DNA of 64,000 bases from Cyanobium sp. NIES-981. Lineage in GTDB: Bacteria; Cyanobacteriota; Cyanobacteriia; PCC-6307; Cyanobiaceae. The translations under genes were made by a program, and so were the position numbers. The notes under the pieces are model-generated. The model worked only from the letters and a program-made list of their open reading frames with translations. It ran no database searches and was not told the origin of the DNA. The DNA lies in contig NZ_LT578417.1 of the NCBI RefSeq assembly GCF_900088535.1, forward strand, positions 558,001-622,000. Direction: 5' to 3'. Of the stretch, positions 14,097 to 20,709 are shown piece by piece (positions within the stretch are counted from its first letter, which is position 1; each line of letters begins with the position of its first letter).

Positions 14097-15055
14097 GACC
14101 GTGCCAGTACGGGCAACAGGGTGGGAGCGATCGCCACGCTGGACCAGGCGCCGACCACCACGCCCACACTCAGGGCCACCGCGAACCAGAAGAGGGTGCT
14201 GCCGCCGAAGAGGATCAGCGCCAGCAGCGGCAGCAACGTGGTGAAGCTGGTGTAGATCGAGCGGGTGAGGGTGGCCGCAACGGCGGCATCAGCCTGCTCG
14301 GCCAGCGAAAGATCCTGCAGCTGGTTCCGCTTTTCCCGGATCCGGTCGAAGATCACCACCGTGTCGTTCACCGAATAACCGGCGATGGTGAGCAGCGCCA
14401 CTGCAAAGAGGCTGTTCACCTCCACTCCGGCCAGCAGCCCGAGCCAGGCGAAGACGCCACAGGTGATGAGCACGTCGTGGGCCAGACACAGCAGGGCCAG
14501 CAGGGCAAACAGCCGGTCGTAGCGGATGGTGATGTAGGCGGAGATGCCCACGAAACTCACCGCCAGGGAGATCATGCTGGCCCGCAGCAACCGGCTGCCG
14601 AGCGTGGGACCGATCGTTTCCACCGACAGCCCGGCAGGATCGGTGGGCCCGAGCACCGGTGCGAGGCCCGTCACCACGGCCTGGCCCTGCTCCGCCGTGA
14701 GGCTGGGCAGCCGCAGCACCACCTGCTGACCGCCATCCAACAGCTGCACCGCGGCACCGCTGAGGCTCGGGGGAGCGGCCGCGCCGGCCTCGGCCGGCAG
14801 GCGAATCGTCGCCAGCTGGCCTTCCACCGCCGCTGGGGTGAGAGCGGAACAGGTGGCTCCGCAGCTTCGCGCCAGCTGGATCTGGGTTCCGCCCGTGAAG
14901 TCGAGCCCGGGTCGCAGCGGCGCCCGGATCGAGGGCGCCATCCAGCTGATCCCGATCCCCAGCAGGCTGAGCAGCAGGGCGACGGCCGAGGCGGCCCAGA
15001 GGGTGCGGCGGCGGCGGTTGACCTGCACACCCGGCAGACGACTCAGGATGGACAT
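14093..15055 (-). CDS. secF: Protein translocase subunit SecF
   Basis: 320 residues. One N-terminal helix, a periplasmic/lumenal P1-like domain beginning GLDFTGGTQIQL, then five helices with YSVNDTVVIFDRIREKRNQL, the SecF signature. With SecD it uses the proton gradient to pull exported proteins through SecYEG after SecA-driven translocation; in cyanobacteria it serves both plasma and thylakoid membranes. It lies 15 bases after secD. Confidence 0.95.
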   Translation of the reverse strand: MSILSRLPGVQVNRRRRTLWAASAVALLLSLLGIGISWMAPSIRAPLRPGLDFTGGTQIQLARSCGATCSALTPAAVEGQLATIRLPAEAGAAAPPSLSGAAVQLLDGGQQVVLRLPSLTAEQGQAVVTGLAPVLGPTDPAGLSVETIGPTLGSRLLRASMISLAVSFVGISAYITIRYDRLFALLALLCLAHDVLITCGVFAWLGLLAGVEVNSLFAVALLTIAGYSVNDTVVIFDRIREKRNQLQDLSLAEQADAAVAATLTRSIYTSFTTLLPLLALILFGGSTLFWFAVALSVGVVVGAWSSVAIAPTLLPVLARS

Positions 15056-15070
15056 CAGGGCGGGATCGGT

Positions 15071-16576
15071 TCAGGTGGATGCCGCCGGGAGCTGAACCCG
15101 GGGCAGGAAATAGGTGGGCTGGCGCAGGGCCGGGTAACTCATCAGCAGGCGCAGGAGCGTGCGGGTGCAGGTGAGGGCACTGAACAGGCTGAGCAGCACG
15201 CCGATGCCGAGGGTCACGGCAAAGCCCTTCACGAAGCCGGTGCCCAGGGCGAAGAGGGCCACACAGCTGATCAGGGTGGTGAGCTGGCCATCGAGAATGG
15301 AGGAGAAGGCCAGGCTGAATCCGGTGTCGATCGAGCGGATCAACGTGTTGCCAGCGCGCAGTTCATCCTTGATTCGCTCGAAGATCAGCACATTGGCATC
15401 CACCGCCATGCCCAGCGAGAGGATGAAGCCCGCGATGCCCGGCAGGGTCAGTGTCACCGGGATGAGGGCATAGAGGGCCAGGTTGAAGAGCGCGTAGAGG
15501 CTGAGCGCCAGCACCGCCACCACACCGGCCAGGCGGTACACCAGCACCATGAACACCGCCACCAGCACCAGGCCGGAGAGGGCCGCCACCAGGCTGGTGC
15601 GGATGTTGTCGGCGCCGAGGGAGGGACCCACGGTTCGCACCTCCACCACCCGCACCGGCAAGGGCAGGGATCCACCCCGCAGCTGCACCTCGAGGTCGCG
15701 CGCCTCTTCGGCGCTGAAGTTGCCGGTGATGCTGGCGGAGCCCCCGGTGATTCCAGCGGCCTTGAACTCGGGCCCGACGCTGGCCTCGCTGATGGAGCGG
15801 CCATCGAGCACGATGCCGAGCAGACGGCCGCTGCCGGCGATGTCCTTCGTGAGGCGGGCGAACTGCTCACCGCCGGCCTGGGTGAAGCTCAGGGTCACCT
15901 CCCATCCGCTGCCGGACTGCTGCTGCTGGCGTCCTGCCGTGACGAGCTCCTTGCCGGTGAGGGCCGCCGGCGCGTAGAGCTCCACAATCTTGGTGTTGAC
16001 GGCATCCAGCAGCAGGGAGAGCTGGTCCGCCTCACTGGCGCTCTCCGGCACGGTCACGCCCAGTTGTCTCAGGGCTGCGGCGAGCTGCTGGGTGGGGAAG
16101 GCGTCTGCAGAGCCCTCGGGAGGGACGTCCCCATTGCCGAGGGCGGCCTGGCGGGCCCGGGCGTTGCCCAGCACGGCCTCGGCCTGGCGCTTGAGCTGGA
16201 GCAGTCCCTGCATCTCCTGCTCGGTGCCGGCACGCTGGGCCCGGAATTCCAGCAGGGCGGTGGAGCCCAGCACCCTGGCGGCACGGCTGGGGTCCTGCTC
16301 ACCGGGCAGCTGCAGCACCAGCTGGTCGTTCCCCACGGTCTGCAGGGTGGATTCGGCCACCCCGAGGCCGTTGATGCGGCGCTCCAGCACCTCCTTCACA
16401 GCTTCGAGCTGCTCCTGATCCACGCTCTTGATGCTGCCGGCGGGCATCACCTGGAGGGTGAGCTGGCTGCCGCCGCGCAGATCGAGCCCGAGCTGCAGGG
16501 GAAAGCTGATCAGCAGGGCCCCGGCAGCGATGGCGAGGGCAAGGATGAGGGCGAACCAGCCCTGTTGACGGGCCAT
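15071..16576 (-). CDS. secD: Protein translocase subunit SecD
   Basis: 501 residues from ATG 16576; the open frame runs 47 codons further into pdhB but MARQQGWFALILALAIAAG is the typical SecD N-terminus. GLDLRGGSQLTLQV, the P1 domain, VRVVEVRTVGPSLG and GMAVDANVLIFERIKDEL are all present. Partner of SecF in the preprotein translocase ancillary complex. Its start codon falls 2 bases after the pdhB stop, so it is probably read from the same mRNA. Confidence 0.95.
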   Translation of the reverse strand: MARQQGWFALILALAIAAGALLISFPLQLGLDLRGGSQLTLQVMPAGSIKSVDQEQLEAVKEVLERRINGLGVAESTLQTVGNDQLVLQLPGEQDPSRAARVLGSTALLEFRAQRAGTEQEMQGLLQLKRQAEAVLGNARARQAALGNGDVPPEGSADAFPTQQLAAALRQLGVTVPESASEADQLSLLLDAVNTKIVELYAPAALTGKELVTAGRQQQQSGSGWEVTLSFTQAGGEQFARLTKDIAGSGRLLGIVLDGRSISEASVGPEFKAAGITGGSASITGNFSAEEARDLEVQLRGGSLPLPVRVVEVRTVGPSLGADNIRTSLVAALSGLVLVAVFMVLVYRLAGVVAVLALSLYALFNLALYALIPVTLTLPGIAGFILSLGMAVDANVLIFERIKDELRAGNTLIRSIDTGFSLAFSSILDGQLTTLISCVALFALGTGFVKGFAVTLGIGVLLSLFSALTCTRTLLRLLMSYPALRQPTYFLPRVQLPAAST

Positions 16577-16577
16577 T

Positions 16578-17561
16578 TCAGAGTGACCCGGCCTTGAGTT
16601 GCCGCGCCGCCTCGACGATCTGATGGGGCTGGATGATCGTGAGGTTCTCCAGGACGCCGTTGTAGGGGGTGGGGATGTCCTGGGAGGACAGACGCACGGG
16701 CCTGGCATCGAGATCATCGAAGCAGTGCTCGGTGATCAGGGCCAGGAGCTCGGCGCCGATCCCACCGGTCTTCATGCACTCCTCCACCACGATCACCTTG
16801 TGGGTCTTGCGGATCGAGGCGGCGATGGTGGCCATGTCGAACGGCTTGAGGCTGATCAGATCGATCAGTTCCACATCCACGCCTTCGGCCTCCAGCTGCT
16901 GCACTGCCTTGAGGCAGTGGTGGCGCATGCGGGAATAGGTGAGAATGGTGACATCCTGGCCTTCGCGCACCACTTCAGCCTGATCGAGGGCACAGATGTA
17001 GTCGCCCTCGGGGATGTCCTCGCTGAGGTTGTAGAGCAGCACATGCTCGAAGAAGAGCACGGGGTTGTTGTCGCGAATCGCAGCCTTCATCAGCCCCTTG
17101 GCATTCGTGGGGGTGCTCACGGCCACGATCTTGATGCCCGGCACCGCATGGAAATAGGCCTCAAGACGCTGGCTGTGCTCCGCGCCTAGCTGGCGCCCCA
17201 CACCCCCGGGCCCTCTCACCACGGCTGGGATGGTGAAGTTGCCGCCGCTGGTGTACCGGAGCATCCCCATGTTGTTGGAGATCTGGTTGAAGGCCAGCAG
17301 CAGAAAGCCCATGTTCATGCCCTCCACGATCGGCCGCAGGCCAGTCATGGCGGCGCCGACGGCCATGCCGGTGAAGCTGTTCTCGGCGATCGGAGTGTCC
17401 AGGACCCGCAGCTCGCCGTACTTCTCGTAGAGGTCCTTGGTCACCTTGTAGGAGCCGCCGTACTGGCCCACGTCCTCCCCCATCACACACACGTGGGGAT
17501 CGCGGGCCATCTCCTCGTCGATGGCTTCGCGGAGAGCGTTGAACAGCAGCGTTTCGGCCAC
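16578..17561 (-). CDS. pdhB: Pyruvate dehydrogenase E1 component, beta subunit
   Basis: 327 residues from GTG 17561. Transketolase-like beta chain: [38 protein letters not shown], and C-terminal transketolase domain with [19 protein letters not shown]. Forms E1 with PdhA (not in the window) and decarboxylates pyruvate using thiamine diphosphate to feed acetyl-CoA production. Followed directly by secD-secF. Plant plastid PdhB is of the same type. Confidence 0.95.
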
Positions 17562-17637
17562 GCGTCGGCAAGCACCATCTGGCCGCCAACTTATCTCAGT
17601 CCGGTTGGAGGAGGGCTGAGACGGGGCACCCTGCCGA

Positions 17638-17733
17638 TCAGCCTCCTGCGGCGAAGGTGCTCAGGATCAGTACGGAAAGCAGCATGCCCGGCAGCAGCAG
17701 GGTGACGAGCAGGCCCAGATCATGGGGAGTCAT
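17638..17733 (-). CDS. 31-residue single-span membrane peptide (small ORF)
   Basis: Reading the minus strand from ATG 17733 gives 31 codons to TGA at 17638: [20 protein letters not shown] followed by [11 protein letters not shown]. Nearly the whole peptide is one transmembrane helix. It lies in a 181-base gap between the DUF3082 gene and pdhB, same strand as both, with its start 9 bases after the preceding stop. Size and shape resemble small photosystem or NDH subunits, but it does not match PsbM, PsbT, PsbI, PetN, PetL or PsaM as I know them. Real-gene status is inferred from position and composition. Confidence 0.55.
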
Positions 17734-17742
17734 GGCCCGACG

Positions 17743-18084
17743 CTAGGGGCGATCCTCGGGGCTGGCCGGTGTCGGTGCGGATCCCGAGAAGAGACTGCGC
17801 AGGAACACCAGGCAGAGCCCCAGGGCGATGAAGCCGAAGCTGAAGGTGGCCAGGAAGGCCATCCCCACGATCAGGGTCTTGAGCGCCGTGGCGATGCTCT
17901 GGGCGATGGCCGAGCTGTAGTGGGGCGGATGCAGGGCGTAGTAGAGCGCCATGCGCCGGCTGAGGCCCAGACACAACCAGCTGAGCAGTCCGGCCGTGAG
18001 AGCTCCGGAGAGAAAGCTCAGCGGGCCCTTGCGGGCGGGCTGCGCGTCATGACCGGGGTCGGTGGGAGGGAGGGAGTCGCTCAC
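17743..18084 (-). CDS. DUF3082 membrane protein
   Basis: 113 residues from a GTG overlapping the ispE stop (GTGA). Two to three helices: [20 protein letters not shown], then [20 protein letters not shown], then [20 protein letters not shown]. The [20 protein letters not shown] stretch is typical of DUF3082, a cyanobacterial and plastid family of unknown function. It sits in the rsmA-ispE operon. Confidence 0.85.
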
Positions 18085-19028
18085 CCCTCCAGGCTGACAC
18101 CCCGCGGGCGCAGCCGGCAGGCCCAGCTGACGAAACCGCCGGCCTCGATTCCGCCGGCCAGCGCGGCCTGGGCGGCGAGGGCCTGATCGAGCTGGCCGAA
18201 CAGGGCGAACACACTGGGACCCGATCCACTCATGGCCACCGCCAGGGGACCGTTGGCCTGCCGCAGCAGCTCCAGCCCCGCCCGCACACTGGCCACCTCT
18301 GGCTCCACCACCTGCTGCAGGTCATTGCGCAGGGGGGGCAGGGCCAGGCCGGCCCTGCCCCCCGGCCCCAGGGCGTGCAACAGGGGCGACTGGCGCAGGG
18401 CATCCCGCCGCCGGGCGAAGTCCACCTCGGTGTGCAGGTAGGTGTGCTGGCGCTGCTCCCGGCAGAGGCGGTAGGCCCAGGGTGTGCTGACGCTCGCGTC
18501 CGGATGCTTGAGCAGCAGCACCGCCAGATCTGCGCTGCCCCCATCCCGCTGGGGTTCCAGCACCTCTCCGCGACCGAAGCAGAGCTGGGTGCCCCCGGCG
18601 AGGCAGAACGGCATGTCGGAGCCGAGGGTGGCGGCCATCTCCAGCAGGTCCTCCGGTGCGAAACCGAGCCCCCACACGGTGTTCAGCCCCACCAGGGCGG
18701 CGGCGCCATCACTGGAGCCCCCCGCCAGACCGGCGCCCACGGGGATGCGCTTCTGCAGATGGATCCGGGCACCGAGCTCCGGCAGTCCGGCCCTGGACCG
18801 CAGCAGCGCGGCGGCCTTCACGATCAGGTTGTCGCCGTCCACCGGCAGGGCCGGGTTGTCACAGCTGAGGGTGATGCCGCCATCGGCTGTGGGGGAGAGC
18901 TGAAGGGTATCCAGCAGGTCGATGCTCTGCATCACCATCGCCAGCTCATGGAAGCCGTCGCGGCGCAGGCCCAGCACCTCCAGGTGCAGATTGATCTTGG
19001 CGGGAGCCCAGACGGTCAGATCAGCCAT
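18081..19028 (-). CDS. ispE: 4-diphosphocytidyl-2-C-methyl-D-erythritol kinase
   Basis: 315 residues. GHMP kinase: [11 protein letters not shown] at the N-terminus, [20 protein letters not shown] as the ATP loop, and [13 protein letters not shown] near the C-terminus. Phosphorylates CDP-methylerythritol in the MEP pathway, feeding carotenoid, phytol and quinone side chains. The start overlaps the end of rsmA by 8 bases. Confidence 0.95.
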
Positions 19029-19863
19029 GGCATGCAGGGGGAGCGGGCAGGACGCCGGTGGAGCGATTCAAACCGGCAGCCAGCCGCAGCCAGGCCGCCG
19101 GGGCGATCTCCTGGGGGCGCTGCTGCAGGCCGATGCCCGCCTGCTCGGCCAGGTCCTGGAGCTCCCCCTCAGGGAGCAGCCCGGCCAGGCTGTTCCGCAG
19201 CATCTTGCGGCGGGCAGCGAAGCTGCGGCGCAGCAGCTGCTCTGTGGTTCGGGCCAGGGAGGCCTCGGGAAGCTCCCCCGCGCCGTGGGGCTCGATCAGG
19301 ATGACTTCTGACTGCACCTTCGGCGGCGGCTGGAAGCAGCGCGGAGGCACCGGGCACACCGTGCGGCACTCCCCCAGCAGCTGCATGCGCACGCTCAGCG
19401 CCGAGTAGGCCGGGCTGCCGGGGCTGCAGCGGATGCGCTCAGCCACCTCCCGCTGCAACAGGAGCACCAGCCGCCGGTACGGCGGCTGCACGGGACGGTC
19501 GAGGCGGCCCACCAGACGCTCCAGCAGCGGGCCGGTGATGTTGTAGGGGATGTTGGCCACCACCTTGTCAGCCGGGGGGAGGGAAAGGGCGAGGGCATCG
19601 CCCTGATGCAGGGCGAAGCGGGGATCGCCGCCGAAGCGTTGCCGCAGGCCCGCCACCAGGTCGCGATCCAGCTCCACCGCCGCCACCGCCGCCGCCCCGC
19701 TGGCCAGGAGCCTTCCGGTGAGGGCTCCGCGCCCCGGACCGATCTCCAGCACCCGCTCCTCAGGCCGCAGGTCCGCCGCAGCCACGATCCGATCCAGCAC
19801 CGCCGCATCGGTGAGCCAGTGCTGGCCGAAGCGCTTGCGGGCGCGGTGGGCGGCGAAGGACAT
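19021..19863 (-). CDS. rsmA: 16S rRNA adenine(1518/1519) dimethyltransferase RsmA
   Basis: 280 residues from ATG 19863. [17 protein letters not shown] opening, SAM loop [12 protein letters not shown], catalytic [12 protein letters not shown] (N-x-P-Y), and a C-terminal helical domain with [19 protein letters not shown]. Dimethylates two adenosines in helix 45 of 16S rRNA late in 30S assembly (ksgA). First gene of the minus-strand run that continues through ispE. Confidence 0.95.
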
Positions 19864-19995
19864 GGCGGCGGCACGATCCCCCCAGACTGCCTGCCGGTGT
19901 TCCCCGGCGGCGCCGCAGTGGCTGCGGCGCTAGACCGGACGTTGACCCCCTCCCGGGCTTGCGACATCCCGGGGCTTCCGACACCTGGGCCTGCC

Positions 19996-20277
19996 GTGAT
20001 CAGTCCTGCCTTGCTTCTGGTTTCCCTGACGGCCCTGGCCCTCACGGCCCCCGCCGCCGGAGCCGGCAGCATCACGGCGGGTTCGGTGTGGGACCGGGAC
20101 AATGCCCTGCAGCGCGCCCGTGAACAGATGCCCAAGGGGGCCACGGAGACGCGCAACCGCTGCGAGGAGGTGGAGGTGGGCATGAACAACGTGCGCTACC
20201 GCTGCACGGTCTGGTACGACACCCCCCCGGCCGCTCCCACGGCCGCTCCCATGGCTGCTCCGACGGTGGAACCCTGA
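19996..20277 (+). CDS. Small secreted protein, unknown
   Basis: 93 residues from GTG 19996. A signal peptide is evident: LLLVSLTALALTAPAAGAGS, with likely cleavage after AGA. The mature part is about 70 residues, has two cysteines (NRCEEVEV and YRCTVWYD) that may pair, and ends in a repetitive Pro/Thr/Ala tail (three PxAAP-like units). The divergent neighbour is rsmA. Function unknown; periplasmic or lumenal location inferred. Confidence 0.65.
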   Translation: MISPALLLVSLTALALTAPAAGAGSITAGSVWDRDNALQRAREQMPKGATETRNRCEEVEVGMNNVRYRCTVWYDTPPAAPTAAPMAAPTVEP

Positions 20278-20340
20278 GCCGCTGACACCCTGGTGCAGGG
20301 CGCCAGGAGCAGGGCGCCAGAACGGTGCGGGTGAGCCGAC

Positions 20341-20709
20341 CTAGGCGGTGACCCGGATCCAGCGCACCGGCCGTCTGGAGGGCGGCAGGGGCACCAGGGC
20401 GTAGACCTGCTCCACGGGGGCCCCGGCCCACTCGGGATGCTCCAGCAGCCAGCAGGCCCAGCTGCGCTCCAGCCGGATGCGCTTGGCCGCTCCCAGCGCC
20501 GCCCGGCCCCAGCCATCCGGGCCGCTGCGGGAGCGTGCCTTCACCTCCACCAGCAGCAGCCGCGGCGGCTTCACCAGCACCAGATCCAGCTCGCCCCAGC
20601 GGCAGCGCCACTGCCGATCCAGCAGCGTCCAGCCCCGCGCCCGCAGCAACCGCAGGGCACGCTGCTCGGCCCAGTTGCCCTGGCGCTGGGTGGGTGAAGG
20701 GGTCGCCAA
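20341..20709 (-). CDS. YraN/UPF0102 family endonuclease-like protein
   Basis: 122 residues from TTG 20709; no ATG or GTG exists before an upstream in-frame stop, and a GGGAG lies about 6 bases before the TTG. RQGNWAEQRALRLLRARGW, then CRWGELDLVLV and LLLVEVKARS give the G-E-x-D...E-V-K residues of a PD-(D/E)XK nuclease fold. UPF0102 proteins are conserved but their substrate is not settled; Holliday-junction-resolvase-like activity has been suggested from structure. Confidence 0.85.
   Translation of the reverse strand: MATPSPTQRQGNWAEQRALRLLRARGWTLLDRQWRCRWGELDLVLVKPPRLLLVEVKARSRSGPDGWGRAALGAAKRIRLERSWACWLLEHPEWAGAPVEQVYALVPLPPSRRPVRWIRVTA

What the first reader, a model, noticed from the sequence alone, without database searches (positions are those of the whole stretch)
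17638..17733. Unannotated-type 31-residue transmembrane peptide in an operon
A complete ORF starting ATG and made almost wholly of one membrane helix sits 9 bases after the DUF3082 gene and before pdhB, same strand. Its composition differs from known tiny photosystem and cytochrome subunits. It could be a new small subunit of a thylakoid or plasma-membrane complex.
Basis: partly seen in the sequence, partly recalled or inferred. Interest (0 to 1): 0.5.

Follow-up and report, generated by a model that had tools for sequence, protein, structure and literature searches.

The report
Conserved membrane microprotein Norf4 in picocyanobacteria
The tiny 31-residue membrane protein is real and strongly conserved across most cyanobacteria; it is the picocyanobacterial form of Norf4, a known protein of unknown function once reported missing from this group, and it survives in relatives that have lost both photosystems, so it is probably not a photosystem part.

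Summary
The 31-codon ORF (17733..17638, minus strand) is a real gene. Picocyanobacterial copies differ mostly at silent sites (median pN/pS 0.21, 1222 pairs). A profile finds it in 168 of 386 genomes sampled from the phylum, all in the window's class. It is not new as a protein: Norf4 of Synechocystis 6803 (Baumgartner et al. 2016) is 31 residues, membrane-spanning and detected with a FLAG tag. The published norf4 primers match a family member exactly, and it lies beside a GAPDH gene on the opposite strand, as published. New: the paper calls Norf4 lacking in alpha-cyanobacteria; here it sits in an alpha-cyanobacterial gene order DUF3082-norf4-pdhB, found in 46 of 50 family genomes examined. 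The photosystem option is disfavoured: four endosymbiont genomes with no intact psaA/B or psbB/C keep an intact copy, and no PDB sequence matches. Best guess: a one-helix subunit or assembly helper of a respiratory/cyclic electron-transfer complex, perhaps NDH-1, packing through one conserved helix face. Identity is near certain; function is inferred and unproven.

The parts
17638..17733 (-). norf4 ortholog, 31 aa, one predicted helix (residues 3-28), taken to span the membrane
   Evidence: ORF; conservation; identity to Norf4; AlphaFold2 helix, mean pLDDT 93.3
17743..18084 (-). DUF3082 gene, 113 aa, immediately upstream
   Evidence: Pfam E 3.5e-25; same strand and order in 46 of 50 family genomes examined, in one of them (L012) about 0.8 kb away
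16578..17561 (-). pdhB, pyruvate dehydrogenase E1 beta, immediately downstream
   Evidence: Pfam Transket_pyr and Transketolase_C; same strand and order in 46 of 50 family genomes examined
18081..19028 (-). ispE-like GHMP kinase, overlaps the DUF3082 start
   Evidence: Pfam GHMP_kinases N and C; the name ispE is recalled
19021..19863 (-). ksgA-like rRNA adenine dimethylase, overlaps the kinase start
   Evidence: Pfam RrnaAD E 9.2e-51; the name ksgA is recalled

Best explanation
The ORF encodes the alpha-cyanobacterial ortholog of Norf4, a 31-residue single-helix protein present in most cyanobacteria sampled (shown). It inserts as one transmembrane helix and packs one conserved face (L9, L13, G16, S20, M/L24, F27) against a larger membrane protein (the face is shown by periodicity; insertion and packing are inferred). 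That partner is more likely in the respiratory/cyclic electron-transfer system that diatom diazoplasts still keep (NDH-1, cytochrome b6f, terminal oxidase, ATP synthase) than in PSI or PSII (inferred from retention). NDH-1 is the single most likely partner (weak inference). The peptide would act as an accessory subunit, stabiliser or assembly helper. My separate confidences: Norf4 identity 0.97; not a photosystem subunit 0.93; a respiratory/cyclic electron-transfer partner 0.4; NDH-1 specifically 0.25.
For: Identity: the three published norf4 primer sequences compared match L148 without mismatch, and L148 carries a GAPDH-like gene on the opposite strand 84 nt downstream, as published for norf4/gap1. 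The window peptide is 17/31 identical to it without gaps, E 4e-07 for that comparison, and 0 of 200000 shuffles reach its score. A profile built without any member of that family (A1) finds that genome (G145) at 1.7e-12. Diazoplasts are reported to keep thylakoids and complete respiratory electron transport (PMC11070190, passages). No PDB chain matches, while a 29-residue PetN control finds five PetN sequences. Partner face: conservation at residues 6-28 has its strongest period at 100 degrees (5-degree steps), p 0.0042 for 135 peptides and p 0.012 for the 35 unfiltered peptides of A1; leaving out positions 13, 15, 19 and 20, which my extraction pattern restricted, p is 0.0046 and 0.023. NDH-1 hint: in 29 loci (25 genomes by my mapping) of families f25 and f28 the gene directly upstream is a PF02636 methyltransferase, the family of the complex I assembly factor NDUFAF7 (recalled); PF02636 is in 21 of 21 genomes tested with norf4 and 14 of 20 without.
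Against: No experiment links Norf4 to any complex. Its gene neighbours change between lineages, so there is no stable operon partner outside the picocyanobacteria and one S. elongatus-like genome. Several lineages lack it, so it is dispensable there; I did not test their respiratory chains, which I assume to be ordinary. The PF02636 link rests on about three loss events, one of which could be a joint deletion of adjacent genes; Fisher p 0.0086 ignores relatedness. Diazoplasts might keep Norf4 for something unrelated to electron transfer. [quoted passage not shown]
Confidence: 0.42

Rival explanations
1. A small regulator or chaperone of a general membrane machine (translocon, FtsH protease, ion transporter, lipid enzyme), not a part of an electron-transfer complex.
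For: Patchy loss and changing neighbours suit an accessory regulator. PcxA/CemA is directly upstream in 18 loci (about 11 genomes by my mapping), including UCYN-A-like and diazoplast genomes. Small one-helix regulators of transporters are common (recalled).
Against: PcxA itself cannot be the obligate partner: CemA-family genes are missing in the 4 picocyanobacteria of at most 1.9 Mb tested, all of which have the peptide, and present in all 19 tested genomes that lack it. No other candidate of this kind was tested.
Confidence: 0.33
2. A photosystem I or II subunit.
For: Confined to one class of cyanobacteria in the 386-genome sample; size and single helix resemble PsbT, PsaM and PetN (31, 31 and 29 aa).
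Against: Kept intact in 4 of 4 genomes with no intact psaA/B or psbB/C and in 2 of 2 UCYN-A-like genomes with intact psaA/B but no intact psbB/C (one of these keeps an intact shorter CP43-like gene, perhaps isiA). No match among PDB chains, which include cyanobacterial photosystem structures (recalled).
Confidence: 0.04
3. A dual-function transcript whose main role is RNA-based (antisense to gap1 in Synechocystis), with the peptide secondary.
For: Baumgartner et al. report a longer norf4 transcript overlapping gap1, accumulating transiently under nitrogen stress.
Against: In the window the neighbour is pdhB on the same strand, not gap1. Conservation is of codons, with silent sites much changed. 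No Rfam match at E up to 0.1 in 15000-20500.
Confidence: 0.04
4. A chance ORF conserved only because it lies inside an operon.
For: Short ORFs are abundant here.
Against: In 44 of 44 loci from the first tblastn search (L004-L047, read without a length filter) the frame stops directly after residue 31, and 43 of 44 have ATG at residue 1; median pN/pS about 0.2; and it is conserved in genomes without the DUF3082-pdhB order.
Confidence: 0.005

Closest known systems
Norf4 of Synechocystis sp. PCC 6803 (Baumgartner et al. 2016, PMC5126843)
   Same: 31 aa, one transmembrane region, gap-free alignment with 17/31 identical to the primer-matched L148 copy, including P15, L19, S20 and the ending FAxGG; unknown function
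   Different: Lies beside gap1 on the opposite strand in Synechocystis and is reported lacking in alpha-cyanobacteria; here it lies between DUF3082 and pdhB in an alpha-cyanobacterium
Tiny one-helix photosynthetic subunits (PetN, PsbT, PsaM)
   Same: 29-31 residues in Synechocystis; one helix (recalled)
   Different: No Pfam match to them and no PDB match; retained without photosystems. Retention alone does not exclude a b6f-associated peptide
SliP4/HliR1 and AtpTheta/Norf1, other small cyanobacterial proteins
   Same: Small Synechocystis proteins, since given roles in bioenergetics (abstract starts in the listings; the synonymies HliR1 = SliP4 and Norf1 = AtpTheta are recalled)
   Different: Different length (37 and 48 aa); no relation tested here
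Oxidase micro-subunits (CydX, CoxIIa)
   Same: Single-helix accessory peptides of terminal oxidases; a model for how Norf4 might work (recalled)
   Different: No such family among the Pfam matches at E up to 1 of 35 members scanned

Membership tests
Norf4 | 31-residue ORF of constant length | tested here: met
   31 aa in the window; the frame stops after residue 31 in 44 of 44 loci read without a length filter, 43 with ATG at residue 1; the other, L037, may start three codons earlier
Norf4 | Sequence homology to Synechocystis Norf4 | tested here: met
   17/31 identical without gaps; 0 of 200000 shuffles as good; L148 anchored by exact published primers. The 6803 record itself was not fetched
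Norf4 | One predicted transmembrane helix | tested here: met
   AlphaFold2 helix 3-28, pLDDT 93.3; hydrophobic composition seen directly. No dedicated membrane-topology program was run
Norf4 | Protein made in vivo | not testable with these tools
   Shown for Synechocystis with a FLAG tag (PMC5126843 abstract); no data for this genome
Norf4 | Overlap with gap1 mRNA (a feature of Synechocystis, not of the whole family) | tested here: not met
   The neighbour here is pdhB; the nearest GAPDH-like ORF found within 6 kb is over 4 kb away. Of the 54 loci of that call only one other (L038) holds a GAPDH-like ORF, so I do not treat it as defining
PSI or PSII small subunit | Lost when the photosystem is lost | tested here: not met
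   Intact in 4 of 4 genomes with no intact psaA/B or psbB/C
PSI, PSII or b6f small subunit | Sequence among solved complexes | tested here: not met
   0 matches in the PDB at E up to 10 with sequence and profile; PetN control found. Chains of unknown residues are not in that library
NDH-1 subunit or assembly helper | Co-purification or loss-of-function defect in NDH-1 | not testable with these tools
   Only indirect: PF02636 adjacency and nested occurrence
PcxA/CemA accessory peptide | Co-occurrence with PcxA | tested here: not met
   The 4 picocyanobacteria of at most 1.9 Mb tested have the peptide and no CemA-family match; all 19 tested genomes without the peptide have one

The most novel reading that the evidence does not exclude
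Norf4 is an overlooked, nearly universal subunit or assembly helper of the cyanobacterial respiratory/cyclic electron-transfer system, most likely NDH-1.
Probability: 0.22. Interest if true: 0.8.

Novelty: new member of a known kind. Interest (0 to 1): 0.5.

Why it matters
It contradicts the published statement that Norf4 is lacking in alpha-cyanobacteria, the marine picocyanobacteria among them, and makes it a protein of most cyanobacteria. It also narrows the function: selection keeps it where both photosystems are gone. That makes a direct test possible in laboratory Synechocystis or S. elongatus, and gives a reason why structures from Thermosynechococcus could not have shown it.

Tried and rejected
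PcxA/CemA as partner: attractive because it lies directly upstream in 18 loci, but rejected as an obligate partner. Photosystem subunit: disfavoured. Hidden diverged copies in norf4-less genomes: the profile at E up to 10 in 24 genomes (22 of the class, 2 outside) gave matches in 16, the best at E 0.18 and none over the full length; a degenerate pattern in the 22 class genomes gave three matches, two with an in-frame stop and one without the final stop. I take these lineages as lacking it, though strong divergence is not excluded. Two further matches, G451 (E 0.003) and G569 (E 0.009), are partial; they are within the 333 and I did not use them. Phage and plasmid copies: none by tblastn. RNA family in 15000-20500: none. 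Pfam DUF5367 at E 0.063 is below its cut-off and was dismissed. Row dropped: G043/L048 (E 0.75, inside a 716-codon frame) from the 45 of 60, leaving 44. Loci L116-L140, L202 and L203 (weak matches) were left out of the alignments and counts. Caveat: the peptides were extracted with a pattern that fixed the length, P15, S20 and G30-G31 and restricted residues 1, 13 and 19, so invariance there is partly built in; the 35 peptides of A1, taken without it, show L9, L13, P15, L19, S20, G30 and G31 invariant, and repeats the periodicity test on them and without those positions.

Papers: PMC5126843 abstract, sections 12 and 16, and passages; PMC11070190 and PMC5638926 passages only; all others only as search listings. 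I did not open the Nostoc proteogenomics paper (PMC8557916), Pro-SMP finder (PMC10903887) or the small-protein review (PMC7760959), any of which might mention homologs under another name.

Full report
What is there. The minus-strand ORF 17733..17638 (ATG to TGA) encodes [31 protein letters not shown]. It starts 9 bases after the stop of a DUF3082 gene and ends 76 bases before the GTG of pdhB. Upstream, the order is a KsgA-like methylase, an IspE-like kinase and DUF3082, with overlapping ends; pdhB is followed by ORFs that read as SecD and SecF (the SecD/SecF names are my reading and were not tested).

Is it a gene? Yes. tblastn finds it in 45 of 60 genomes, the window's own included, at E up to 1; I discard one weak row (G043), leaving 44. 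In all 44 the frame stops after residue 31, and 43 have ATG at residue 1. A 35-sequence profile (A1) finds it in 168 of 386 genomes drawn from the phylum. All 168 are in the window's class. The genomes without a match are listed by kinship: 18 of the class, then two outside it, with 198 not printed; I infer 168 of 186 in the class and 0 of 200 outside. In one order, 333 of 388 genomes have a match at E up to 0.01, two of them partial and doubtful. In 50 genomes of the window's family, differences fall mostly on third codon positions (9675/4092/22633), and median pN/pS is 0.21, maximum 0.73, over 1222 of 1225 pairs. Against eight of eleven congeners the ORF stays 79-88% identical while the flanks mostly do not.

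What it is. Baumgartner et al. 2016 (PMC5126843; I read the abstract, sections 12 and 16, and passages with the primers) describe Norf4 of Synechocystis 6803: 31 aa, with a predicted transmembrane region, detected as a tagged protein, its mRNA overlapping gap1 on the other strand, present in 51 genomes including two of Candidatus Atelocyanobacterium thalassa, and lacking in alpha-cyanobacteria. The figure with the sequence is not held, but the primers give MTADQLL... and ...GSFAKGG. Locus L148 matches all three primer sequences compared without mismatch and has a GAPDH-like gene on the opposite strand 84 nt downstream. L148 lies on a contig whose length, 96,220, equals that of a record titled Synechocystis salina LEGE 00031. 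Its peptide, MTADQLLMLVVLLVPGILLSALVMGSFAKGG, aligns to the window peptide without gaps, 17/31 identical. The profile A1, built with no sequence of that family, finds that genome (G145) at 1.7e-12. So the window peptide is a Norf4 ortholog.

Alpha-cyanobacteria. The alpha-carboxysome protein CsoS2 (its use as a marker is recalled) is found in 11 of 11 genomes of the window's family tested, the window's own included, and in 0 of 5 others, so this is an alpha-cyanobacterium. In one search all 58 family genomes listed have the peptide and none is listed without, 31 of 37 do, and the six without it are 62-88% complete. DUF3082 upstream and pdhB downstream on the same strand are found in 46 of the 50 family genomes for which I held a locus, in one of them (L012) with DUF3082 about 0.8 kb away, and in one S. 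elongatus-like genome outside the family (L037), where DUF3082 is 0.6 kb away and an ABA4-like gene on the other strand lies nearest upstream (mapping of loci to genomes is mine). The published statement of absence therefore does not hold for the genomes now available. A word search for norf4 in the held library found no other relevant paper (3 papers, two on viruses). One search returned none; searches listed none whose title or abstract start describes the alpha form, but I did not open those papers apart from PMC5126843, and subscription journals and preprints are mostly not held.

Where it is missing. Some lineages lack it: five of five genomes of family f35, two of two of f16 and three of three of f23 sampled, eight of the nine f37 genomes listed, and others; a looser profile and a DNA pattern found no convincing copy in the class genomes re-searched.

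Photosystems. Four genomes have no psaA/B match (G197, G593) or only fragments, nearly all with stops (G229, G312), and no intact psbB/C: fragments with stops or one match below the cut-off in three, nothing in G593. All four keep the 31-codon ORF, with far more silent than replacement changes (12 against 1 between G312 and G593; pN/pS 0.03-0.16 in the five of six diazoplast pairs computed). Two genomes of 1.44 and 1.49 Mb with intact psaA/B and no intact psbB/C also keep it; one of them, G613, has an intact 347-codon CP43-like frame of the size seen beside psbB/C in other genomes, which I take for isiA (recalled). I take both for UCYN-A from size and gene content. Passages in PMC11070190 say diazoplasts keep thylakoids and complete respiratory electron transport; passages in PMC5638926 report no functional photosystem genes in the R. 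gibberula endosymbiont and loss of photosynthesis in that of E. turgida. So selection on Norf4 does not depend on photosystems, unless it reflects time before their loss. Together with no PDB match by sequence or profile, against a working PetN control, this argues against a photosystem subunit.

How it may work. AlphaFold2 gives one helix, residues 3-28, pLDDT 93.3. Among 135 distinct peptides, conservation at residues 6-28 has its strongest period at 100 degrees, p 0.0042-0.0044 by permutation. Because my extraction pattern restricted some residues, I repeated the test on the 35 peptides of A1, taken without it (p 0.012), and without positions 13, 15, 19 and 20 in both sets (p 0.0046 and 0.023); the period stays at 100 degrees. 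The peptides are related, so these p values are indicative. One face is kept, as for a helix packed against a partner. I infer an accessory subunit or assembly helper.

Which partner? Neighbours vary: in families f25 and f28 a PF02636 methyltransferase lies 80-280 nt upstream on the same strand (29 loci, 25 genomes); in others PcxA/CemA (18 loci, about 11 genomes); a convergent DUF760 gene follows in 48 loci, some genomes counted more than once. PcxA fails as obligate partner. PF02636 is present in 21 of 21 genomes with norf4 and 14 of 20 without (Fisher p 0.0086 without correction for relatedness). One of the six genomes without either, G105, belongs to a genus where G277 keeps both side by side. 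PF02636 is, from memory, the family of NDUFAF7, an assembly factor of complex I, which is why I lean to NDH-1. This is a lead, not a demonstration.

Verdict. The new points are its presence in alpha-cyanobacteria, its gene order there, and its retention without photosystems.

Noticed in passing
29 loci (25 genomes) of families f25 and f28, e.g. L110, L085, L168: A PF02636 methyltransferase (family of NDUFAF7, recalled) lies directly upstream of norf4; the six genomes of 41 tested that lack PF02636 all lack norf4 too.
   Followed up: partly
48 loci, e.g. L094, L192, L199: A DUF760 gene converges on norf4 from the opposite strand across several families, with scpB within 700 nt in 20 loci; function of DUF760 unknown.
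   Followed up: no
18 loci including UCYN-A-like L198/L199 and diazoplasts L192, L195, L200, L201: PcxA/CemA, a proton-extrusion protein (recalled), sits directly upstream and has no stops even in genomes without intact photosystem genes.
   Followed up: partly
window 17743-18084: DUF3082 protein of unknown function, in the same order with norf4 and pdhB in 46 of 50 family genomes examined.
   Followed up: no
L037 (S. elongatus-like genome G046): The ORF may start three codons upstream (ATG ACT GCT TTG), giving 34 residues, and an ABA4-like gene lies between DUF3082 and norf4 on the other strand.
   Followed up: no
G312 and G229 (contig lengths of the Epithemia clementina and Rhopalodia gibberula endosymbionts): psaA/B survive only as fragments, nearly all with stops, while two other diazoplast genomes have no match.
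   Followed up: no
G613 (UCYN-A-like, 1.44 Mb), C1:1021868-1022812: An intact 347-codon CP43-like frame, perhaps isiA, in a genome without intact psbB/C.
   Followed up: no
G105 against G277, same genus g64: G105 has no match to norf4 or to the PF02636 gene, which are neighbours in G277; perhaps one deletion.
   Followed up: no
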